Shown here: positions 52,986 through 61,602 of the stretch, one piece after another
Layout: each line of letters begins with the position of its first letter
Numbering within the stretch: position 1 is the first letter of the stretch
Assembly: GCA_016235125.1 (NCBI GenBank)
Contig: JACRLZ010000001.1
Span: 360,645 to 424,644, forward strand
Length of the DNA: 64,000 nt
Reading direction: 5' to 3'
Source of the DNA: Sphingobacteriales bacterium
GTDB lineage: Bacteria; Bacteroidota; Bacteroidia; Chitinophagales; Chitinophagaceae
Notes under the pieces: generated by a model
Database searches by the model: none
What the model was told of the DNA's origin: nothing
What the model saw: the letters and a program-made list of their open reading frames with translations, nothing else
Program-made: the position numbers and the translations under genes

Positions 52986-53007
52986 TAACCCGGCAAATTG
53001 GAAAAGT

Positions 53008-53042
53008 TTTGGAAATTATTTTAAACTAATATTATACATTTG
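53008..53042 (+). promoter_or_regulatory. Promoter of the arginine operon
   Basis: TTTG (53008-53011) and TACATTTG (53035-53042), an exact match to TAnnTTTG, are 23 bases apart. Transcription would start near 53049, giving a leader of about 235 bases before the first gene. The leader encodes the peptide at 53069. Confidence 0.65.
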
Positions 53043-53068
53043 TTTCCAAATTAGCTATTGAAGCAAGC

Positions 53069-53191
53069 ATGTTCAACATTCTGACACATACAAAGCAAAT
53101 GGCGTTTCATGCACCGATCACCAGCGGGGTTTACTCGGTTGGTTTTGATGTGTTCACTTTTTCCCGCCCCCGACGCCGCCCTGTATTCTGA
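53069..53191 (+). CDS. Arginine leader peptide (attenuator), 40 codons
   Basis: An ATG 20 bases after the predicted transcription start opens 40 codons ending S-R-P-R-R-R-P-V-F. Arginine is at residues 33, 35, 36 and 37 (codons CGC, CGA, CGC, CGC), four of five consecutive codons. It lies upstream of the arginine operon, just before a 10-bp hairpin whose left arm overlaps the stop codon. This is the layout of amino-acid attenuators such as trpL or hisL: ribosome stalling at Arg codons when arginine is scarce would change leader folding. An in-frame ATG at 53099 would give 30 codons with the same end. No poly-U terminator is obvious, so the downstream switch is not settled. Confidence 0.75.
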   Translation: MFNILTHTKQMAFHAPITSGVYSVGFDVFTFSRPRRRPVF

Positions 53192-53223
53192 CAGGACGAA
53201 CCCCTCACCATGGTCCCTGTCAG
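53188..53223 (+). promoter_or_regulatory. Attenuator hairpin 1 of the arg leader
   Basis: CTGACAGGAC (53188-53197) pairs with GTCCCTGTCAG (53213-53223), 10 pairs with one bulged G. The loop holds AACCCC (53199-53204), which could also pair with GGGGTT at 53126-53131 in the leader ORF. A ribosome at the stop codon would cover the left arm. Confidence 0.6.
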
Positions 53224-53271
53224 TGAAGCACCTCCGCAAATTTAATTTGGGATGGTTACCCGCAGTTCACT
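53222..53271 (+). promoter_or_regulatory. Attenuator hairpin 2 before the GNAT gene
   Basis: AGTGAAGC (53222-53229) pairs with GCAGTTCACT (53262-53271, two bulged bases), and CAAAT-TTA-ATTTG folds inside the loop. A T-rich stretch (AATTATTTCGATTT) follows, 12 bp before the TTG start. It could stop transcription or hide the ribosome site. Confidence 0.45.
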
Positions 53272-53283
53272 AATTATTTCGAT

Positions 53284-53994
53284 TTGGATAATCACAACAT
53301 CATTATAAGGGTAGCAACAGCAGCAGATAAAGTTTATTCAAAAACTATCACTGATGAAATGGAAGATTCGGCCAATGCCCGTGGCACCGGTATAGCCAAA
53401 CGAAGCCCTGAATACATTGAGGAAAAGATTGATGAGGGCAAAGCAGTTATTGCTATCACTGATCAGAATGAATGGGTCGGTTTTTGTTACATCGAAACAT
53501 GGAGTCATGGGGAATATGTAGCCAACAGCGGGTTGATCGTAGCACCGGCATATAGAAAAAGCGGCGTGGCTAAAGCTATCAAACAAAAGATATTTGCTCT
53601 GTCAAGAGAAAAATATCCGGAAGCAAAAATCTTTGGGTTAACCACCGGTCTTGCAGTGATGAAGATCAACAGTGACCTGGGTTATGAACCTGTCACTTAT
53701 TCTGAGCTTACACAAGATGAAGCGTTCTGGGCGGGCTGCAAAAGCTGTGTGAATTATGAAATATTGATGGGTAAAGAAAGAAAGAACTGTATGTGTACTG
53801 CCATGCTGTATGACCCGAAAGATCACTATGAACCGGAAGAAACAAAACAATATTTTGAAGAAAATAAAAAAGGATTTGAAAGACTCATTCGCTTCAAGCA
53901 ATGGAAATTGCTTAGACCTTTTATGAAAAAGGATAAAAATGGCGGTAACGGCGGCAAGCCAAAATCATTATTTCATTACCTGTTTAACCTTTAG
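53284..53994 (+). CDS. GNAT acetyltransferase at the head of the arginine operon
   Basis: This 236-residue GNAT protein opens the arginine operon, where it most likely acylates glutamate, replacing classical ArgA (N-acetylglutamate synthase). The acyl-CoA-binding region is seen in NSGLIVAPAYRKSGVAKAIKQ, read here in two parts (VAPAYRKSGVAKAI is the Q/R-x-x-G-x-A-like loop). The start is TTG with no ATG in the conserved region. Bacteroidota operons often carry such a gene at this place, which supports the role, but the acyl group (acetyl or succinyl) cannot be told from sequence. Confidence 0.78.
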   Translation: MDNHNIIIRVATAADKVYSKTITDEMEDSANARGTGIAKRSPEYIEEKIDEGKAVIAITDQNEWVGFCYIETWSHGEYVANSGLIVAPAYRKSGVAKAIKQKIFALSREKYPEAKIFGLTTGLAVMKINSDLGYEPVTYSELTQDEAFWAGCKSCVNYEILMGKERKNCMCTAMLYDPKDHYEPEETKQYFEENKKGFERLIRFKQWKLLRPFMKKDKNGGNGGKPKSLFHYLFNL

Positions 53995-54001
53995 TTAGCT
54001 A

Positions 54002-55204
54002 ATGTCAAAAAAAATTGTTTTGGGTTTCAGTGGCGGACTTGACACAACTTACTGTGTAAAATACCTCAGCGAAGAAAAAGGCTACGAGGTACACAGTATT
54101 ATTGTAAACACTGGCGGTTTCAGCAATGACGAGTTGAAGAAGATCGAATCTCATGCTTACAAACTCGGCGTAAAAACACATACTACGGTTGATGCCGTGA
54201 GAAGCTATTATGACCGTATCATTAAATACCTCATTTTCGGAAACTGTTTAAAAAATAATACCTATCCTCTTTCAGTATCTGCAGAAAGGCTTAGCCAGGC
54301 ATTGCATATTGCCGAACATGTTCAAAAACTCAAAGCAGATGCAGTGGCGCATGGCAGCACCGGCGCAGGCAACGACCAGGTGCGGTTTGATATGATATTC
54401 CATATCATGATACCGGGTGTCGAAATCATCACTCCCATCCGTGATTTAAAACTAAGCCGGGAAGAAGAAATCGCCTACCTGAAAAGCAAAGGCGTGGAAA
54501 TGAACTTCGGGAAAGCCATATACTCAATCAATAAAGGTCTGTGGGGAACCAGCGTCGGCGGAAAAGAAACACTTTCTTCAAAAGGCATACTGCCAGAAGA
54601 GGCCTGGCCAACACAGGTGACAGAGTCAGGAGTCAGTAGTCTGGAGTTGGGGTTCACAAAAGGAGAATTGAAAAAGGTTGATAGGAAAGAATTTGATCAT
54701 CCTTCTGAAGCAATACAATATTTACAAAGTATTGCCGGACCTTATGGCATTGGCCGTGATATACATGTGGGTGACACGATTATCGGTATAAAAGGCCGTG
54801 TGGGATTTGAAGCTGCTGCACCGATGATAATACTCAAATCACATCATGCTCTCGAGAAACATGTTCTTACCAAGTGGCAACTGCAATGGAAAGATACGCT
54901 GGCGCAGTTTTATGGCAACTGGATGCATGAAGGCCAGATACTGGACCCGGTGATGAGAGATATTGAAGCCTTTCTTGAAAACAGCCAGCAAACTGTAACA
55001 GGTGATGTGTTTGTTCAGTTAATGCCTTACCGTTTCCAGGTCACGGGCATTGAAAGCAAATATGACCTGATGAGCAGCAAGTTTGGTAAATACGGTGAGA
55101 TGAATACCGGCTTTACCGGCGAAGATGTAAGAGGTTTTTCAAAAATATTCGGCAACCAGACAAGTATCTGGAATGCTGTGCAAAAAGAAAACGATGGCGA
55201 TTAA
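54002..55204 (+). CDS. argG: Argininosuccinate synthase
   Basis: ArgG joins citrulline and aspartate using ATP. The 400-residue protein has the PP-loop GFSGGLDTTYCVKYL, the block AHGSTGAGNDQVRFD, and the catalytic region with TPIRDLKLSREEEIAYL. It has the sequence type of Bacteroidota ArgG. The segment VTESGVSSLELGF (residues about 207-217) is encoded by AGTC-family repeat units (54621-54652), though overall length stays normal. Its last 11 bases overlap argC. Confidence 0.95.
   Translation: MSKKIVLGFSGGLDTTYCVKYLSEEKGYEVHSIIVNTGGFSNDELKKIESHAYKLGVKTHTTVDAVRSYYDRIIKYLIFGNCLKNNTYPLSVSAERLSQALHIAEHVQKLKADAVAHGSTGAGNDQVRFDMIFHIMIPGVEIITPIRDLKLSREEEIAYLKSKGVEMNFGKAIYSINKGLWGTSVGGKETLSSKGILPEEAWPTQVTESGVSSLELGFTKGELKKVDRKEFDHPSEAIQYLQSIAGPYGIGRDIHVGDTIIGIKGRVGFEAAAPMIILKSHHALEKHVLTKWQLQWKDTLAQFYGNWMHEGQILDPVMRDIEAFLENSQQTVTGDVFVQLMPYRFQVTGIESKYDLMSSKFGKYGEMNTGFTGEDVRGFSKIFGNQTSIWNAVQKENDGD
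54621..54652. repeat. AGTC-family repeat segment inside argG
   Basis: CAGAGTCAGGAGTCAGTAGT continues CTGGAGTTGGGG. It matches the block after upp (47968-48061), in frame, in a variable part of ArgG. Confidence 0.5.
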
Positions 55205-56171
55205 AGTAGGCATAATCGGAGGTGCAGGCTACACCGGAGGTGAGTTAATACGACTGCTGTTAAATCACCCCTGTGTAAACATCTCTTTTATTAATAGCCG
55301 GAGCAATGCGGGCAAACTGGTTTCATCTGTTCATCAGGATCTGCTGGGGGATACTGATATCAGGTTCTCAGGTGAATTGCTCAATGACATTGATGTTTTG
55401 TTTTTGTGCCTTGGTCATGGCGAATCGGAAAAATTTATTTTGGAAAACAAAATTTCTGATAAAATAAAGATTATTGATCTGGCGAATGATTTTCGCTTAA
55501 ATCAAAAATCTAAAATCCAAAGCCGAAAATTCATCTATGGATTACCTGAATTAAACAGGGAGCATATAAAAAAAGCAAGCAACATTGCCAATCCCGGATG
55601 CTTTGCCACCACTATTCAGCTTGGCTTATTACCATTAGCCAAAGCCGGTTTACTGAAAGACATATATACAACGGGCATTACCGGCAGTACAGGTGCCGGA
55701 CAATCATTCAGCCAAACTTCTCATTTCAGTTGGAGAGAAAATAATATACAGGCCTATAAAACATTAACACACCAGCATCTTGGAGAAATTGGGGAATCGC
55801 TAAAGCAATTACAACCAACCGGCCACATCAACGTAAATTTCGTTCCGTGGAGAGGCGATTTTACAAGAGGAATTTTTGTGAGTTCCCAACTGCAATGTAA
55901 TAAACCTTTGGATGAACTGAATAAATTGTATGAGGATTATTATGCCGGTCACCCGTTCATACATATTACAAAAGAACAGGTTTTTCTGAAGCAGGTAGTG
56001 AATACTAATAAGTGCATTATACAACTGGAAAAAGTGGATTCTGTGCTGGTAGTACATTCCGTTGCTGATAACTTATTAAAAGGCGCCAGCGGACAAGCCG
56101 TGCAAAATATGAATTTGATGTTCGGAGTTGATGAAACAACAGGATTAAGATTAAAAGCAAATTATTTTTAA
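55194..56171 (+). CDS. argC: N-acetyl-gamma-glutamyl-phosphate reductase
   Basis: ArgC reduces acylglutamyl phosphate to the semialdehyde with NADPH. The 325-residue protein has GIIGGAGYTGGELIRLL (nucleotide binding), the catalytic cysteine in ANPGCFATTIQLGLLP, and the catalytic histidine in a block beginning THQHLGEIG. Residues 102-113 (NQKSKIQSRKF) are encoded by a repeat-like segment at 55499-55531, a few residues longer than in relatives. The frame opens at 55173, but the ATG at 55194 starts the Rossmann fold. It overlaps argG by 11 bases. Confidence 0.95.
   Translation: MAIKVGIIGGAGYTGGELIRLLLNHPCVNISFINSRSNAGKLVSSVHQDLLGDTDIRFSGELLNDIDVLFLCLGHGESEKFILENKISDKIKIIDLANDFRLNQKSKIQSRKFIYGLPELNREHIKKASNIANPGCFATTIQLGLLPLAKAGLLKDIYTTGITGSTGAGQSFSQTSHFSWRENNIQAYKTLTHQHLGEIGESLKQLQPTGHINVNFVPWRGDFTRGIFVSSQLQCNKPLDELNKLYEDYYAGHPFIHITKEQVFLKQVVNTNKCIIQLEKVDSVLVVHSVADNLLKGASGQAVQNMNLMFGVDETTGLRLKANYF
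55499..55531. repeat. AAATCTAAAATC-family segment inside argC
   Basis: AAATCAAAAATCTAAAATCC is followed by AAAGCCGAAAATTC. The 12-mer AAATCTAAAATC also occurs, on the other strand, at 47221-47237 before anmK. Confidence 0.5.
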
Positions 56172-56174
56172 ATA

Positions 56175-56220
56175 GCCACAGAAACACAGAGAAAATTCAG
56201 CGCCTCTGTGTTTCAGTGGC
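56175..56220. repeat. Inverted repeat between argC and argD
   Basis: GCCACAGAAACACAGAG (56175-56191) and CTCTGTGTTTCAGTGGC (56204-56220) match as reverse complements in 16 of 17 positions, with a 12-base loop. It can form a strong hairpin in the operon mRNA and would slow or trim the transcript; no T tract follows. Confidence 0.7.
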
Positions 56221-56232
56221 AAAAAAATTGAA

Positions 56233-57387
56233 ATGAATTTATTTGACGTTTATCCAATCAACGAAATCACCATCGTAAAAGCCAAAGGCTCCTATGTATG
56301 GGATGATAAAGGCGAGCAGTATCTTGATCTTTACGGCGGCCATGCAGTAATCAGCATTGGTCATACGCATCCGCATTGGGTTAAACGAATTGAAGAGCAG
56401 TTAGAGAAAATTGCTTTTTATTCCAATTCAATAAGAATTCCATTGCAACAGGAACTGGCAGTAAAGCTTGGCCATGTATCCGGAAAAGAAGATTACCAGC
56501 TTTTCCTCTGCAATAGCGGAGCCGAAGCCAATGAAAACGCATTGAAGATGGCATCCTTTCACAATGGCAGGAAAAAAATAATTGCTTTCAGTAAATCATT
56601 TCATGGCAGAACATCGCTGGCCGTTTCAGCAACGGATAATAAAAATTATATCGCCCCGGTTAATGAAACAGGCAATGTTATTTTTCTTCCGTTGAATGAT
56701 GAAAATGCATTACAGGATTGTTTTGAAAAAAACGGAAAAGAAATCTCTTCTGTCATCATTGAAGGCATACAAGGAGTGGGTGGTATAAATGTGGCCGAAG
56801 TTTCCTTCCTGAAAAAAATACGCAGCCTTTGCGATGAATATGGCGCTGTGTATATCGCCGACAGTGTACAGTGTGGTTATGGCCGGAGTGGAAAATTCTT
56901 TAGTCATGATTTTGCGGGGGGAAATGCTGATATGTACACAATGGCAAAAGGTATGGGCAATGGTTTTCCGGTAGCCGGAGTAATTATAGCGCCACACATA
57001 AAGCCCAAACACTTTCAACTCGGAACTACATTTGGTGGTAACCATCTCGCCTGTACCGCAGCATTAGCAGTACTGGAAGTAATAGAAGAAGAAAAGCTGC
57101 TTGGCAACGCTACAATGGTGGGTAAATATTTAAAGGATGAACTGGAGGCTATTCCGCAGTTGAAAAATGTTCGTGGCCGTGGTTTGATGATTGGTTTTGA
57201 CGTACCGGAAGAATTGAAAGATTTAAAAAAGAATCTGCTCTGGAATCAGAAAATATTTACCGGTGAGGCTAAACCCAATGTAATTCGTTTGTTGCCGAGT
57301 CTTGCTTTGAAGAAAAGAGATGCGGAACAATTCATTGAATCAATAAAAGAAGAAATCAGCAACATGGTTTCTGCACCTGTTAGTTAA
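56233..57387 (+). CDS. argD: Acetylornithine aminotransferase
   Basis: ArgD is a PLP enzyme that makes acyl-ornithine by transamination. The 384-residue protein has YLDLYGGHAVISIGHTHP, NSGAEANENALKMA, the cofactor-binding region with ADSVQCGYGRSGKFF (PLP aspartate) and the internal lysine in YTMAKGMGNGFPVAG. All key residues are present. In this pathway it may also act on succinyl-ornithine. It follows the hairpin repeat and precedes argF by 2 bases. Confidence 0.93.
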   Translation: MNLFDVYPINEITIVKAKGSYVWDDKGEQYLDLYGGHAVISIGHTHPHWVKRIEEQLEKIAFYSNSIRIPLQQELAVKLGHVSGKEDYQLFLCNSGAEANENALKMASFHNGRKKIIAFSKSFHGRTSLAVSATDNKNYIAPVNETGNVIFLPLNDENALQDCFEKNGKEISSVIIEGIQGVGGINVAEVSFLKKIRSLCDEYGAVYIADSVQCGYGRSGKFFSHDFAGGNADMYTMAKGMGNGFPVAGVIIAPHIKPKHFQLGTTFGGNHLACTAALAVLEVIEEEKLLGNATMVGKYLKDELEAIPQLKNVRGRGLMIGFDVPEELKDLKKNLLWNQKIFTGEAKPNVIRLLPSLALKKRDAEQFIESIKEEISNMVSAPVS

Positions 57388-57389
57388 AG

Positions 57390-58415
57390 ATGAGAAATTT
57401 CACTTCTGTAAACGACCTAAGCCCCTCCTTCGGAGGTTCCCTGAAAGGAAACGAACGAAGTTCAGGGGAGGCTATTGATACATTGGTACAAACAGCCCTT
57501 GCCTGCAAGGCCAACCCCTTTGCAGACAAAACGCTGGGGACAAACAAAAGAATTGGTTGCCTGTTTCTGAACCCGAGTATGCGTACCAGACTGAGCACAC
57601 AAATAGCCGCTCAAAACCTCGGCATGGAAGCCATCATCTTCAATGTTGGAAGCGAAGGCTGGGCATTGGAGTTTGAAGAAGAGGCCATCATGAGTGGCAA
57701 TACCGTAGAGCATGTAAAAGATGCAGCACCCATATTTGGAAAATATTTCGACATTCTTGCCATCCGAACTTTCCCCTCATTAAAAAACAGGGAAGATGAT
57801 TACAGCGAGCTGTACATTAAACAGTTCATTAAATATGCAGGTATACCGGTGGTGAGTCTGGAAAGCGCCACATTGCATCCATTACAATCTCTCACAGATA
57901 TTATAACTATAAGTGAAGAGTTGGCCAAGCCCACCCCTTCGGGGGACAGGAAGGCTAAACCAAAAATTGTTCTTACCTGGGCTCCGCATGTAAAACCCCT
58001 TCCTCAATGTGTGGCCAATAGTTTTTCACAGTGGATAAATGCCTGGGGTAAAGCTGATTTTGTCATTACACATCCGGAAGATTATGAACTGAGTGAAGAA
58101 TTCACCAAAGGAGCCACTATCACTCACAACCAGGAGGAAGCCTTACAAGGTGCAGACTATGTTTATGTGAAAAACTGGAGCACCTATAATGATTATGGAA
58201 AGATTTATACCAATAATCCTAAGTGGATGCTGAAAGAAAAAAGATGGTCGCTAACCAACAACGCAAAAGTGATGCACTGCCTGCCGGTAAGAAGAAATGT
58301 GGAGCTAAGTGATGAAATATTGGATGGCCCAATGAGTATCGTTACCCAACAGGCCGGCAACAGGGTGTGGGCAGCACAGGCTGTTTTATCTGAAATATTG
58401 AGAAGCAATGGCTGA
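57390..58415 (+). CDS. argF': N-acyl-ornithine carbamoyltransferase (ArgF') with two in-frame repeat insertions
   Basis: Bacteroidota use ArgF' to carbamoylate N-acetyl- or N-succinyl-ornithine. The 341-residue protein keeps the carbamoyl phosphate loop NPSMRTRLSTQIA, the block HPLQSLTDI and the C-terminal HCLPVRRN. Two segments seem foreign: residues 8-28 (LSPSFGGSLKGNERSSGE) and about 179-190 (PTPSGDRKAK). The first is encoded by a C/G-rich palindromic repeat (57410-57472) with the same ends as the one at 37918-37964. Catalytic loops lie outside both insertions. The exact acyl substrate cannot be told. It overlaps argB by 8 bases. Confidence 0.92.
   Translation: MRNFTSVNDLSPSFGGSLKGNERSSGEAIDTLVQTALACKANPFADKTLGTNKRIGCLFLNPSMRTRLSTQIAAQNLGMEAIIFNVGSEGWALEFEEEAIMSGNTVEHVKDAAPIFGKYFDILAIRTFPSLKNREDDYSELYIKQFIKYAGIPVVSLESATLHPLQSLTDIITISEELAKPTPSGDRKAKPKIVLTWAPHVKPLPQCVANSFSQWINAWGKADFVITHPEDYELSEEFTKGATITHNQEEALQGADYVYVKNWSTYNDYGKIYTNNPKWMLKEKRWSLTNNAKVMHCLPVRRNVELSDEILDGPMSIVTQQAGNRVWAAQAVLSEILRSNG
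57410..57472. repeat. C/G-rich palindromic repeat inside argF'
   Basis: AAACGACCTAAGCCCCTCC with GGAGG forms a hairpin, and GGGGAGGC ends the element. Start and end match the repeat before the LytTR gene (37918-37964). The element is read in frame. Confidence 0.7.
57926..57957. repeat. Second C/G-rich segment inside argF'
   Basis: AAGCCCACCCCTTCGGGGG is a small hairpin, followed by ACAGGAAGGCT. It resembles the C/G-rich family but only loosely. Confidence 0.4.
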
Positions 58416-59211
58416 TTTGTTTGTCATAAAGATTGGCGGAAATATTATTGATGATGAAACAAAGCTTTCTTTATTCCTAAAATCATTTGCTGCAATTGAT
58501 AACAAAAAAATATTGGTTCATGGTGGCGGCAGGCTGGCCACTAAACTGGCAGAACAATTAAAAATACCACAACAGGTTGTTGAAGGAAGAAGGATCACTG
58601 ATGCAGAAACATTGAAAGTAGTAACGATGGTGTATACCGGATACATCAATAAAAACATTGTGGCACAGTTGCAGTCAAACAACTGCAATGCTATCGGGCT
58701 TTGTGGCGCAGACGGGGATGCTATCCTTGCTCATAAACGAGAACACCCGGTCATGGATTATGGTTTTGTCGGCGATGTAGATGTGGTGAATACGGTTTTT
58801 TTACAGTCATTCATTGAAAAAAATATTACTCCTGCTCTCTCTCCCATTACACATGATGGCAAAGGGCAATTACTGAACACCAATGCAGATACTATTGCAC
58901 AGGAAGTAGCCAAAGCCATGAGCAGCGAATATGACGTTCAGCTTATTTATACTTTTGAAAAGAGCGGAGTGTTAACGGATGTAAATGACGATAACTCTGT
59001 GATACCTGTTATTACTCCTTCTCTCTTTAGTGAGTTAAAAGCCCCCCTTACGGGAGTTGGGGTACCAAAAATCTTTGCAGGTATGATACCCAAACTGGAC
59101 AATGCCTTTGCTGCATTAAACAGTGGTGTTAAAAAAGTAATTATTGGCAAAGCAGAGAATTTAGCAGGGCTGATTGATGGCAGCTCCGGAACAACTATTA
59201 TCAATGAATGA
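58408..59211 (+). CDS. argB: Acetylglutamate kinase
   Basis: ArgB phosphorylates acylglutamate. The 267-residue protein has VHGGGRLATKLAEQL, GLCGADGDAI, NTNADTIAQEVAKAM and AGMIPKLDNAFAAL, the family blocks. Residues 210-220 (APLTGVGVPKIF) hold a segment encoded by a C/G-rich repeat-like sequence (59036-59066), a few residues longer than relatives. It overlaps argF' by 8 bases and argE by 8. Confidence 0.94.
   Translation: MADLFVIKIGGNIIDDETKLSLFLKSFAAIDNKKILVHGGGRLATKLAEQLKIPQQVVEGRRITDAETLKVVTMVYTGYINKNIVAQLQSNNCNAIGLCGADGDAILAHKREHPVMDYGFVGDVDVVNTVFLQSFIEKNITPALSPITHDGKGQLLNTNADTIAQEVAKAMSSEYDVQLIYTFEKSGVLTDVNDDNSVIPVITPSLFSELKAPLTGVGVPKIFAGMIPKLDNAFAALNSGVKKVIIGKAENLAGLIDGSSGTTIINE
59036..59066. 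repeat. C/G-rich repeat segment inside argB
   Basis: AAAAGCCCCCCTTACGGG is followed by AGTTGGGG. It resembles AAAGCCCCGCCTAAGGTGGGG at 37929 and is read in frame. Confidence 0.5.
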
Positions 59212-60274
59212 ATCGCTAACCACATTGCAAAATGAAGCTATTGAGTTATTGAAAAAACTCATTGCCACTCCTTCATTCAGTCGTGAAGAAGACAGGACTT
59301 CGGAAATACTGGAGAAATTTTTCCTTGCTAAAGATATTCCCGCAAAAAAATACTTATACAATGTATGGGCAGTCAATAAATATTTTGATGAAAACAAACC
59401 CACGCTGCTGCTTAACTCACATCATGATACCGTAAAACCTAATTCGCAATACACGAAAGACCCTTTCAATCCTTCAGTTGAAGACGGAAAGCTTTACGGT
59501 CTGGGCAGCAATGATGCCGGGGGATGTCTTGTTTCCCTGATAGCAACATTTCTGTATTTCTATGAAAAAAAGGATCTGAAGTATAATCTCATCCTGGCTG
59601 CTTCGGCCGAAGAAGAGATATCCGGTGCCAACGGTATTGAAGTATTACTAAAACAACTTGGCCCGATAGACTGTGCGATTGTTGGTGAACCCACTCAAAT
59701 GCAAATGGCTGTAGCAGAAAGAGGCCTCATGGTACTGGATTGCCTGGCAACAGGTAAAGCTGGTCATGCTGCAAGAAAAGAGGGTGACAATGCCATTTAC
59801 AAAGCAATAAAAGATATCAATTGGTTTACCTCTTATCGGTTTCCGAAAGTATCAGACCTGCTCGGCCCGGTGAATATGGATGTAACGGTTATTGAAACAG
59901 AAAATAAAGCTCATAATGTTGTTCCTGCTCAATGCAAATTTGTAGTGGATGTAAGAGTAAATGAATATTATACGTTTGAAGAAGTACTGGACGAGATAAA
60001 AAAGAATATACAAAGCGAAGCAAAGCCAAGAAGCTTCCGGCTTCGTTCCACTTCCATTGCATTGGATCACCCGCTGGTGAAAGCTGGTATGAGCCTGGGC
60101 AGAACATGCTATGGCTCTCCCACAACTTCAGACAAAGCGCTGATGTTTTTCCCCTCTTTAAAAATGGGGCCTGGAGATTCAGGCCGAAGTCATTCGGCAG
60201 ATGAGTATATTTATGTGGATGAAATCAGGGAAGGAATTGAGTTATATATAAAATTATTGGGGCAGATACTATGA
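59204..60274 (+). CDS. argE: Acetylornithine deacetylase (M20 family)
   Basis: ArgE releases the acyl group late in the pathway. The 356-residue protein has the M20 metal motifs NSHHDTVKPN, GSNDAGGCLVSLIA, SAEEEISGANG and the final histidine block SGRSHSADEYIY. The ATG at 59204 overlaps the argB stop (ATGAATGA) and gives MNESLTTLQNEAIELL; an upstream ATG at 59177 is possible but adds no conserved residue. It overlaps argH by four bases. Confidence 0.92.
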   Translation: MNESLTTLQNEAIELLKKLIATPSFSREEDRTSEILEKFFLAKDIPAKKYLYNVWAVNKYFDENKPTLLLNSHHDTVKPNSQYTKDPFNPSVEDGKLYGLGSNDAGGCLVSLIATFLYFYEKKDLKYNLILAASAEEEISGANGIEVLLKQLGPIDCAIVGEPTQMQMAVAERGLMVLDCLATGKAGHAARKEGDNAIYKAIKDINWFTSYRFPKVSDLLGPVNMDVTVIETENKAHNVVPAQCKFVVDVRVNEYYTFEEVLDEIKKNIQSEAKPRSFRLRSTSIALDHPLVKAGMSLGRTCYGSPTTSDKALMFFPSLKMGPGDSGRSHSADEYIYVDEIREGIELYIKLLGQIL

Positions 60275-61602
60275 AACTTTGGGAAAAAAATACCAAGTCC
60301 TTAAAGGAAGTAGAAAATTTTACAGTCGGCAACGACAGAAAATTTGATTTAATGCTTGCACCATTTGATGTGCTCGGCAGTATCGCTCATGTTATCATGC
60401 TGGAAACTGCTGGCTTGCTTACTACAGAAGAGAAAGATTTGCTTATAAAAGAACTCAGGACTGTTTATACATCCATTCACAATTCACTATTCACTATTCA
60501 CCCTGATGTTGAAGACATTCACTCACAGGTAGAACTGCTGCTTACGCAAAAACTGGGTGATGTGGGCAAGAAAATCCACTCAGCCCGCAGCCGCAATGAT
60601 CAGGTGTTGGCGGATATAAAATTATTTTTAAGAAATGAGCTGGAAGGATTGGTAAAATCAATTCAGCAATTATTTGAACTACTGCAGTCGCAAAGCGAAA
60701 AATACAAAGATCATCTATTACCTGGATACACTCATCTGCAATTGGCCATGCCTTCATCTTTTGGTCTTTGGTTTGGCGCTTATGCCGAAAGTTTGGTGGA
60801 TGATGTAATAACTGCCAAAGCAGCTTTTGATGTAGTGAATAAAAACCCGCTGGGTTCCGCAGCTGGCTATGGCTCTTCATTCCCCATTGACAGGACATTG
60901 ACAACTAAACTGCTGGGCTTTGATGATTTAAATTATAATGTGGTATATGCACAAATGAATAGAGGAAAAGCAGAACGAATTGTTGCACAGGCAATATCCA
61001 ATGTAGCCGATACTTTGGCCAGGCTCAGTATGGACGCCTGCCTTTACCTGAATCAGAATTTTGGTTTCATTTCTTTCCCTGCTGAGCTGACCACCGGCAG
61101 CAGCATCATGCCGCATAAAAAAAATCCGGATGTATTCGAACTGATACGTTCTCATTGCAACCGTATCAAAGCCTTGCCCAACGAAATAATGCTGATGACA
61201 ACCAACCTGCCTTCCGGTTATCATCGTGACCTGCAGTTATTGAAAGAGCATTTATTCCCTGCTTTTAAAACGCTGAAAGATTGCATTGAAATGGCCGGGC
61301 TGTTGCTGAGTAATGTTGAAATCAAAAAAAATATCCTTGTTGATGAAAAATATAAATACCTGTTTAGCGTAGAAGAAGTGAATAAGCTGGTGAATGCCGG
61401 CATGCCTTTCAGGGATGCTTATAAAAAAGTAGGGATAGATATTGAAGCAGGTAAATTTAATTACGATAACTCAGTTCATCATACACACGAAGGAAGCATT
61501 GGTAATCTTTGCAATGAGGAGATAAAAAAACAGATGCGAAATGTTGTTGATTCATTCCCCTTCGCATCTGTTCAGGCTGCCATAAACAACCTGATTAATT
61601 AA
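60271..61602 (+). CDS. argH: Argininosuccinate lyase
   Basis: ArgH splits argininosuccinate into arginine and fumarate, the last step. The 443-residue protein has the family blocks DVEDIHSQVELLLTQKLG, SARSRNDQVLADIKLFLR in part, GYTHLQLAMP and the signature GSSIMPHKKNPDVFELIR. The segment SIHNSLFTIHP (residues 68-78) is encoded by CATTCAC-family units (60474-60502), without clear length change. It ends the arginine operon, tail to tail with the M28 peptidase. Confidence 0.95.
   Translation: MKLWEKNTKSLKEVENFTVGNDRKFDLMLAPFDVLGSIAHVIMLETAGLLTTEEKDLLIKELRTVYTSIHNSLFTIHPDVEDIHSQVELLLTQKLGDVGKKIHSARSRNDQVLADIKLFLRNELEGLVKSIQQLFELLQSQSEKYKDHLLPGYTHLQLAMPSSFGLWFGAYAESLVDDVITAKAAFDVVNKNPLGSAAGYGSSFPIDRTLTTKLLGFDDLNYNVVYAQMNRGKAERIVAQAISNVADTLARLSMDACLYLNQNFGFISFPAELTTGSSIMPHKKNPDVFELIRSHCNRIKALPNEIMLMTTNLPSGYHRDLQLLKEHLFPAFKTLKDCIEMAGLLLSNVEIKKNILVDEKYKYLFSVEEVNKLVNAGMPFRDAYKKVGIDIEAGKFNYDNSVHHTHEGSIGNLCNEEIKKQMRNVVDSFPFASVQAAINNLIN
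60474..60502. repeat. CATTCAC-family segment inside argH
   Basis: CATTCACAATTCACTATTC is followed by ACTATTCACC. The same units occur between genes at 35951 and 51461. Confidence 0.5.

What the first reader, a model, noticed from the sequence alone, without database searches (positions are those of the whole stretch)
53069..53191. Arginine-coded leader peptide before the arginine operon
A 40-codon ORF after a consensus promoter ends S-R-P-R-R-R-P and overlaps a hairpin, right before an eight-gene arginine operon. Four Arg codons in five would stall a ribosome when arginine runs low. I know of no described arginine leader of this kind in Bacteroidota, but my recall is limited.
Basis: partly seen in the sequence, partly recalled or inferred. 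Interest (0 to 1): 0.85.

Follow-up and report, generated by a model that had tools for sequence, protein, structure and literature searches.

The report
Arginine-sensing leader with knotted RNA
A tiny gene full of arginine codons sits in front of the arginine-making genes of a family of environmental bacteria, ends inside a strongly conserved folded RNA, and probably lets a stalled ribosome report arginine shortage where no usual arginine repressor was found.

Summary
In detail: the ORF at 53069-53191 has four Arg codons in five, follows a promoter-like stretch, overlaps a hairpin and precedes an eight-gene arg operon. Comparison shows it is real. All 19 readable loci of the genus carry the element. 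A covariance model finds it once per genome in 56 of 396 genomes of the order (one a false hit), all in one family, Chitinophagaceae. Of 136 distinct loci, 134 stand before the same acetyltransferase gene and 133 have at least two Arg in the last ten codons; 29 held-out loci agree (28 and 28). Arg sits at codons -3 to -8, almost never at -1 or -2. The UGA lies in the first helix of a covarying hairpin, whose loop, in the window's clade, pairs downstream (pseudoknot). No Rfam family matches. ArgR gave one weak hit in 396 genomes. Many other Bacteroidia carry Arg-ended leaders before this gene. I judge it an arginine-responsive, ribosome-mediated leader with a new RNA element. How the RNA switches the operon is open: no intrinsic terminator was found in the window's clade. 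Against simple codon counting, the long peptide itself is conserved (pN/pS 0.30). There are no expression data here.

The parts
53007..53042 (+). promoter-like stretch: TTTTGG (53007-53012) and TACATTTG (53035-53042), the Bacteroidota -33/-7 type (consensus recalled)
   Evidence: read; TAnnTTTG upstream in 75 of 107 loci vs shuffled mean 17.45, max 23
53069..53191 (+). arginine leader ORF, 40 codons, stop UGA at 53189-53191
   Evidence: amino-acid conservation pN/pS 0.296 over 38 long-type leaders
53165..53179 (+). regulatory Arg codons CGC, CGA, CGC, CGC at codons -8, -6, -5, -4 (CCC at -7)
   Evidence: Arg concentrates at -3 to -8 in 135 loci; CGA 165 of 384 leader Arg codons vs 6.5% of 709 in window ORFs
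53188..53223 (+). hairpin P1/P2: CTGACAGG (53188-53195) with CCTGTCAG (53216-53223), internal loop ACGA (53196-53199)/C (53215), P2 ACC (53200-53202) with GGT (53212-53214), apical loop 53203-53211; the UGA lies in P1
   Evidence: one P1 pair and P2 pairs covary; the other seven P1 pairs never vary
53205..53258 (+). pseudoknot P3: loop TCACCA (53205-53210) with TGGTTA (53253-53258); one C-U mismatch in the window itself
   Evidence: 12.84 vs shuffled 9.05 (max 9.97) in this clade; not supported in the Sediminibacterium-like clade
53224..53235 (+). conserved single-stranded TGAA plus C-rich stretch after P1
   Evidence: T-G-R-A in 74 of 74 distinct hairpins; largely fixed by the search pattern for the pattern-found loci
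53284..53994 (+). first gene of the operon, GNAT acetyltransferase (candidate N-acetylglutamate synthase, inferred), TTG start
   Evidence: non-ATG start in 111 of 122 loci with a script-assigned start
54002..61602 (+). argG, argC, argD, argF-like, argB, argE-like, argH

Best explanation
A cis-acting, ribosome-mediated arginine leader that controls the arg operon. A ribosome translating the 40-codon ORF slows at the CGC/CGA/CGC/CGC cluster when charged tRNA-Arg is scarce. Whether it waits 3-8 codons before the UGA or runs on to the UGA decides whether the UGA-containing hairpin P1/P2, and the pseudoknot P3 made by its loop, can form before the first gene is transcribed or translated. Shown here by comparison: the Arg codons, their position, the UGA in P1, P1/P2/P3 pairing, single-copy linkage to the operon, no ArgR found. 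Inferred: ribosome stalling, response to arginine, and direction. I lean (about 0.5) to P1-P2-P3 being the fold of starvation, operon on: the last Arg codon here is -4, whose stalled ribosome would end near the base of P1, whereas a ribosome on the UGA would cover the whole 5' arm; this is the logic of region II:III in trp. The opposite sign (fold represses) I put at about 0.3. How the fold acts (Rho, translation start, RNA decay, or a very weak terminator) is not known.
For: Element in 19 of 19 readable genus loci; no hit in the three same-genus genomes of the order sample that lack the GNAT. One copy per genome where found. GNAT downstream in 134 of 136 loci and at least two Arg in the last ten codons in 133 of 136; in 29 further distinct loci of the same scan, not used for any other count, 28 and 28. 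Arg at -4 in 113, -3 in 86, -6 in 86, -5 in 49, -8 in 34, -7 in 1, -2 in 2 and -1 in 0 of 135. The searches did not select on these codons. Five loci of the genus have unrelated short leaders (for example MKRTTIFFLTRRLRLC) before the same RNA, so Arg codons plus UGA hairpin are the shared part. P1/P2/P3: 96.0% of cells paired, covariation score reached by 0 of 500 shuffles, slid controls 23-39% paired. CGA is 43% of leader Arg codons. ArgR (PF02863): 1 weak hit in 396 genomes, while 8 of 14 control genomes ring. Arg-ended leaders elsewhere: 38 of 56 (shuffled mean 6.15, max 11) and 24 of 40 (mean 4.45, max 7) upstream regions. L020, another family, has ..RRRR-stop plus a terminator-like hairpin with a T run (read by eye).
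Against: No intrinsic terminator in the window's clade: 0 of 43, fewer than shuffled (mean 3.7, range 1-6). No conserved alternative fold when P1 is blocked (alifold -3.1 and -2.4 kcal/mol). The whole peptide is conserved in the long type, which codon counting does not need. The shuffle controls do not remove relatedness, and the loci are not independent. P3 has a mismatch in the window and fails in the other clade. In the VRR-stop leaders of relatives Arg is at -2 and -1, unlike here. At -3, used by 86 of 135 loci, a stalled ribosome would cover most of the P1 5' arm, which blurs the direction. No expression, stalling or binding data.
Confidence: 0.72

Rival explanations
1. Nascent-chain sensor: the conserved 40-aa peptide arrests the ribosome (as TnaC or SpeFL do, recalled), with free arginine or tRNA state as signal, and the Arg residues act in the tunnel or peptidyl transferase centre rather than as codons being counted.
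For: pN 0.197 vs pS 0.664 over 38 leaders; H7, K9, F13, V24 and D27 invariant in 13 diverse examples. VRR-stop leaders of relatives keep a length of about 43 aa.
Against: Five same-genus loci have short unrelated leaders before the same RNA; Sediminibacterium-type leaders share little but an RRG[CF]-stop end. The codon bias to CGA points to codon reading. Selection on the VRR-type peptides is weak (28 sequences, pN/pS 0.78), and long and VRR types do not align significantly (hhalign probability 1%).
Confidence: 0.25
2. RNA-only regulator: P1/P2/P3 binds arginine or a protein directly (riboswitch or protein site), and the ORF is a passenger.
For: Conserved internal loop (ACGA in 55 of 74 distinct hairpins, C opposite in 72 of 74) and TGRA tail; pseudoknot in the window's clade.
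Against: Arg codons in one frame and at fixed distance from the UGA in 135 loci. Relatives outside the model keep Arg-ended leaders with other RNA downstream. Part of the invariance is imposed by the search pattern.
Confidence: 0.1
3. The 40-aa product is a small protein that works in trans.
For: Purifying selection on the peptide.
Against: Its replacement by unrelated short ORFs (about 16-17 codons) in five loci of the same genus, the stop codon inside the RNA helix, the strict linkage to GNAT, and no Pfam or NCBIfam match.
Confidence: 0.05
4. Chance ORF or antisense gene: the conserved DNA serves another purpose.
For: An antisense ORF (53051-53239, minus) overlaps; one antisense frame also reads Arg (2.8 per 30 nt), explained by CGACG being read as CGTCG.
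Against: That antisense stretch is open in at most 13 of 28 relatives in any frame, while the sense leader ends at the UGA with at least two Arg codons in 133 of 136.
Confidence: 0.02

Closest known systems
Classical ribosome-mediated attenuators of amino-acid operons (trp, his; model paper PMC1183508, passages seen, abstract among them)
   Same: leader ORF with codons for the operon's own product before the stop, RNA structure that depends on ribosome position, biosynthetic operon downstream
   Different: no intrinsic terminator in the window's clade; UGA is inside the first helix; pseudoknot; conserved peptide; arginine
speF orf34 of Salmonella (PMC6386406, abstract and section list seen)
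   Same: two consecutive Arg codons in the upstream ORF; arginine sensed by pausing; outputs are Rho, RBS structure and RNase G rather than a simple terminator; a section heading says the stop-codon position affected regulation
   Different: controls ornithine decarboxylase, another phylum; no sequence comparison was made here
rbfL of Staphylococcus aureus (PMC13009471, passages seen)
   Same: upstream ORF senses arginine through rare Arg codons
   Different: the paused ribosome blocks the RBS of a biofilm regulator and represses it; the codons are AGA/AGG; the passages seen name no structured RNA element
ilvB-II motif of Corynebacterium (PMC10272879, abstract and section list seen)
   Same: a conserved RNA motif that turned out to hold a uORF, with attenuation of an amino-acid operon proposed
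   Different: branched-chain amino acids, Corynebacterium
Attenuation candidates in Flavobacterium psychrophilum (PMC9723704, passages seen)
   Same: same phylum; clues for leader-peptide attenuation upstream of amino-acid biosynthesis operons
   Different: the passages seen name no arginine leader; supplements could not be read
ArgR regulation of arg operons (recalled)
   Same: purpose
   Different: one weak ArgR hit in 396 genomes of this order

Membership tests
Ribosome-mediated amino-acid leader (attenuator) | short ORF with codons of the operon's product near its stop, upstream of the cognate operon | tested here: met
   133 of 136 loci with at least 2 Arg in last 10 codons, GNAT downstream in 134 of 136; held-out 28 and 28 of 29; arg operon in the window
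Ribosome-mediated amino-acid leader (attenuator) | conserved RNA structure positioned so that the ribosome could decide its folding | tested here: met
   UGA in P1; P1/P2/P3 covary; Arg at -3 to -8. The coupling itself is inferred
Ribosome-mediated amino-acid leader (attenuator) | expression responds to the amino acid through leader translation | not testable with these tools
   needs reporters
Transcription attenuator with intrinsic terminator | GC-rich hairpin followed by a T run before the first gene | tested here: not met
   0 of 43 in the window's clade (shuffled mean 3.7); 2 of 31 in the other R1 clade (mean 1.2); 13 of 47 in relatives without the R1 element (mean 8.0, max 11)
Transcription attenuator with intrinsic terminator | mutually exclusive antiterminator | tested here: inconclusive
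   no conserved alternative fold when P1 is blocked; weak hairpin with T-rich tail around the P3 strand in part of the clade
Nascent-peptide arrest leader | peptide sequence under selection | tested here: met
   pN/pS 0.296, 38 leaders; but short unrelated leaders in 5 genus loci
Nascent-peptide arrest leader | arrest that depends on peptide and effector | not testable with these tools
   needs toeprinting
Known Rfam family | match at or above gathering score | tested here: not met
   none in window 40000-64000 nor in 11 relatives; only sub-threshold hit an unrelated lncRNA at E 0.49
ArgR regulon | ArgR in the genome | tested here: not met
   PF02863 in 1 of 396 genomes of the order, at the cut-off and with an internal stop; none in G000; only the C-terminal model was run

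The most novel reading that the evidence does not exclude
A composite arginine sensor in which the conserved 40-aa nascent chain, a CGA-rich Arg codon cluster and a pseudoknotted RNA that has the leader's own stop codon in its first helix act as one switch. It would be one branch of an Arg-ended leader system that does the work of ArgR across much of Bacteroidia.
Probability: 0.22. Interest if true: 0.86.

Novelty: new variant of a known kind. Interest (0 to 1): 0.7.

Why it matters
It would explain how bacteria of an order in which I found next to no ArgR (1 weak hit in 396 genomes) control arginine synthesis. It adds a structured RNA family that Rfam 15 does not match, with a stop codon built into its first helix. 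It also points to Arg-ended leaders before the arg operon in many Bacteroidia. It is directly testable with one reporter and two media.

Tried and rejected
Rfam gathering and e-value scans of the window and gathering scans of 11 relatives: nothing relevant. Pfam (four leader peptides) and NCBIfam (five): nothing. Other copies of the motif or peptide in the own genome: none found, so it is not a leader type shared by many operons there. An extended pairing TCACCNNGGTCC with GGACTGGTGA, seen in the genus, was dropped because P2 changes (GGT to GGC) are compensated on the P2 side and not downstream (read). P3 for the Sediminibacterium-like clade: not better than shuffled (10.89 vs 10.35, max 10.94) nor than permuted (10.29 vs 10.11). 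Common ancestry of the long and VRR-stop peptides: not supported. Terminator scan. Start-codon accessibility with the leader ribosome placed: small change only (mean 0.52 to 0.59 over 38 sequences). Frameshift fusion of leader and GNAT was judged unlikely because the open frame upstream of GNAT differs in length among genus loci (234 to 305 aa); not tested further. L077 (G346) was treated as a false model hit and left out of the 135-locus counts: AT-rich, no Arg leader, and on another contig than that genome's GNAT. Three loci (L251-L253) were left out of the order set. For 12 of the 134 GNAT loci the script assigned no start codon. Search listings also led to PMC2965389 (no passage on arginine or Bacteroidetes).

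Full report
What is there. The window lies in a genome whose genus-mates are Chitinophagaceae: some of their contigs have the same length as named Chitinophagaceae contigs found later, for example 117141 bases. At 53069-53191 an ORF of 40 codons ends in S-R-P-R-R-R-P-V-F and UGA. It follows a promoter-like stretch and stands 92 bases before the TTG start of a GNAT acetyltransferase, the first of eight genes (GNAT, argG, argC, argD, argF-like, argB, argE-like, argH). The GNAT is the natural candidate for the missing N-acetylglutamate synthase; that is inference from the operon.

Conservation in the genus. The GNAT was found in the own genome and in 19 of 22 genus-mates. One contig begins inside the gene; in the other 19 loci, the window included, the same element stands upstream. 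Fourteen carry the long peptide M-x-N-[IL]-L-T-H-T-K-Q-... (first residue V in one), and five (L012, L013, L014, L015, L017) carry short unrelated leaders such as MKRTTIFFLTRRLRLC or MTTAKPLTVIKPLRRIC before the same RNA. What both kinds share is one or more Arg codons just before a UGA and the RNA that starts at that UGA.

The RNA element. In 19 loci the core is CTGACAGG-ACGA-[AG]CC-NN-TCACC-NN-GG[TC]-C-CCTGTCAG-TGAA with few exceptions. A covariance model (R1) run over 396 genomes of the order found it in 56, once each, all in the window's family and in 19 genera. One hit, L077, I judge spurious. From the model hits and 80 of the 117 stretches, made distinct, 136 loci remain: 134 have the GNAT downstream (of the other two, L103 ends with its stored stretch and L077 is spurious), 136 have UGA (fixed by the pattern for the pattern-found ones), and 133 have at least two Arg in the last ten codons. 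The remaining 37 stretches, checked last, gave 8 repeats and 29 new loci: GNAT downstream in 28 (the other ends 128 bases on), at least two Arg in 28, and none with Arg at -1 or -2. Over 74 distinct hairpins of the main set P1 pair 5 is C-G, U-A or U-G in 74 of 74 (shuffled at most 69), and P2 pairs 1 and 3 hold in 71 of 74 each (shuffled at most 60 and 51); the other seven P1 pairs never vary. In the window's clade the apical loop TNACCA pairs with a downstream TGGTNA: on 43 sequences P1/P2/P3 gives 96.0% paired cells, covariation score 0.139 with 0 of 500 shuffles as high, and 23-39% paired when slid; loop-tail complementarity is 12.84 against 9.05 for shuffled tails (max 9.97; 54 sequences). 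Against it: the one P3 pair that covaries is unpaired in 14 of 41 rows, the window among them, and the Sediminibacterium-like clade gives no support. Shuffles do not remove relatedness.

The codons. Arg is at codon -4 in 113, -3 in 86, -6 in 86, -5 in 49, -8 in 34 and -7 in 1 of 135 loci, at -2 in 2 and at -1 in 0. CGA makes 165 of 384 leader Arg codons against 6.5% of 709 Arg codons in mechanically listed window ORFs of at least 200 aa. CGA is thus strongly preferred, although nucleotide-level selection on CGACG cannot be excluded. The sense frame holds 2.84 Arg per 30 nt against 0.58 and 0.23 in the other sense frames; one antisense frame reaches 2.8 because of sequence symmetry, but that stretch is open in at most 13 of 28 relatives.

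The peptide. Over 38 long-type leaders pS is 0.664 and pN 0.197 (ratio 0.296, synonymous sites near saturation). So the peptide itself is selected, which a codon counter does not need. H7, K9, F13, V24 and D27 are invariant in 13 diverse examples. This is the best opening for an arrest-peptide reading; the short leaders in the same genus speak against its being essential.

Wider picture. ArgR (PF02863) was found in 1 of 396 genomes of the order, at the cut-off and with an internal stop, while the same search rings in 8 of 14 control genomes, a Bacteroides among them. In 56 upstream regions of the GNAT from the order (regions not hit by R1; a full-sensitivity search later gave L197 a 23.6-bit R1 match) 38 have an ORF with at least three Arg in its last nine codons (shuffled mean 6.15, max 11); in 40 of the class-level regions, from other orders, 24 do (mean 4.45, max 7). 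Leu, Ser, Pro, Gly, Ala, Thr and Val show no comparable excess (largest: Leu 29 vs 19.4 and Val 7 vs 3.8, in the order set). Many of these leaders are about 43 codons long and end VRR-stop or IRR-stop, others are shorter and end RRPRI-stop. The VRR-type peptides are less constrained (28 sequences, pN/pS 0.78). In L020, of another family, a short leader ends RRRR-stop and is followed by GACTAC-TTATGCA-GTAGTC-GTTTTT, a textbook terminator shape (by eye). Profile comparison does not show that long and VRR types are homologous.

Mechanism. Shown by comparison: leader, codon position, stop codon in the helix, covarying RNA, linkage, next to no ArgR. Inferred: ribosome pausing at Arg codons in arginine shortage alters the folding of P1-P2-P3 and thereby operon expression. 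PMC4833913 states that the ribosome covers about 12 nt beyond the translated codon (passage seen). By that measure a ribosome held at -4 ends near the base of P1 and one on the UGA covers its whole 5' arm, so the fold would be favoured during starvation, as region II:III in trp (PMC1183508, passages). The estimate is uncertain by a codon, and at -3 most of the arm would be covered, so the sign is not settled. The output is the main gap: no terminator in 43 distinct sequences of the clade, only a weak hairpin around the P3 strand with a T-rich tail in part of them (mean -0.7 kcal/mol; TTTT in 21 of 53, control mean 14.6, max 19) and no such tail in the window. Rho, translation initiation at the TTG/GTG start (111 of 122 non-ATG) or RNA decay remain. 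The Salmonella speF leader, which senses arginine by two Arg codons and acts through Rho, RBS structure and RNase G (PMC6386406, abstract), shows that such outputs exist.

Known or new. Eight searches of the held library listed no paper that, by title and abstract start or by the passages I opened, describes an arginine leader in Bacteroidota or this RNA. The nearest are speF orf34, rbfL (PMC13009471, passages), ilvB-II (abstract) and the general remark on F. psychrophilum (passages). Most subscription journals and all preprints are missing from the library, and supplements could not be read, so this is weak evidence of absence. I file it as a new variant of a known kind: it works like a ribosome-mediated amino-acid leader, but it fails the intrinsic-terminator test in its clade.

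Noticed in passing
L197-L249 and L257-L276, roughly 130-390 bases before the end of each fetched stretch (inside the GNAT start): Leaders of about 40-45 codons ending VRR, IRR or SRR, and shorter ones ending RRPRI, before the same gene in other Chitinophagales and other orders of the class, with different RNA downstream; possibly one ancient arginine leader system.
   Followed up: partly
L259, L271, L276, L279, L283, L290 and L239, about 20-40 bases after the leader stop: A recurring CCTACGYGG or CCTATGCGG box in several loci outside the R1 clade (read by eye).
   Followed up: no
L262, L239, L252, L222, L212 around the leader stop codon: A mini-hairpin with the stop codon in its loop, made of the last codons and the bases just after the stop (for example ACGCT-GAT-AGCGT), seen by eye.
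   Followed up: no
L020 (G030), upstream of the GNAT: Short leader ending RRRR-stop followed by a classic terminator-like hairpin and T run with a possible antiterminator: a textbook arginine attenuator shape in another family.
   Followed up: no
53284 and relatives: The GNAT starts with TTG or GTG in 111 of 122 loci with an assigned start, an unusually steady weak start.
   Followed up: partly
L016 (G014), GNAT gene: The GNAT match holds one in-frame TGA; a frameshift, a shorter protein or an error.
   Followed up: no
L012, L013, L014, L015, L017: Within one genus the conserved long leader is replaced by short Arg-coded leaders while the RNA element stays.
   Followed up: partly
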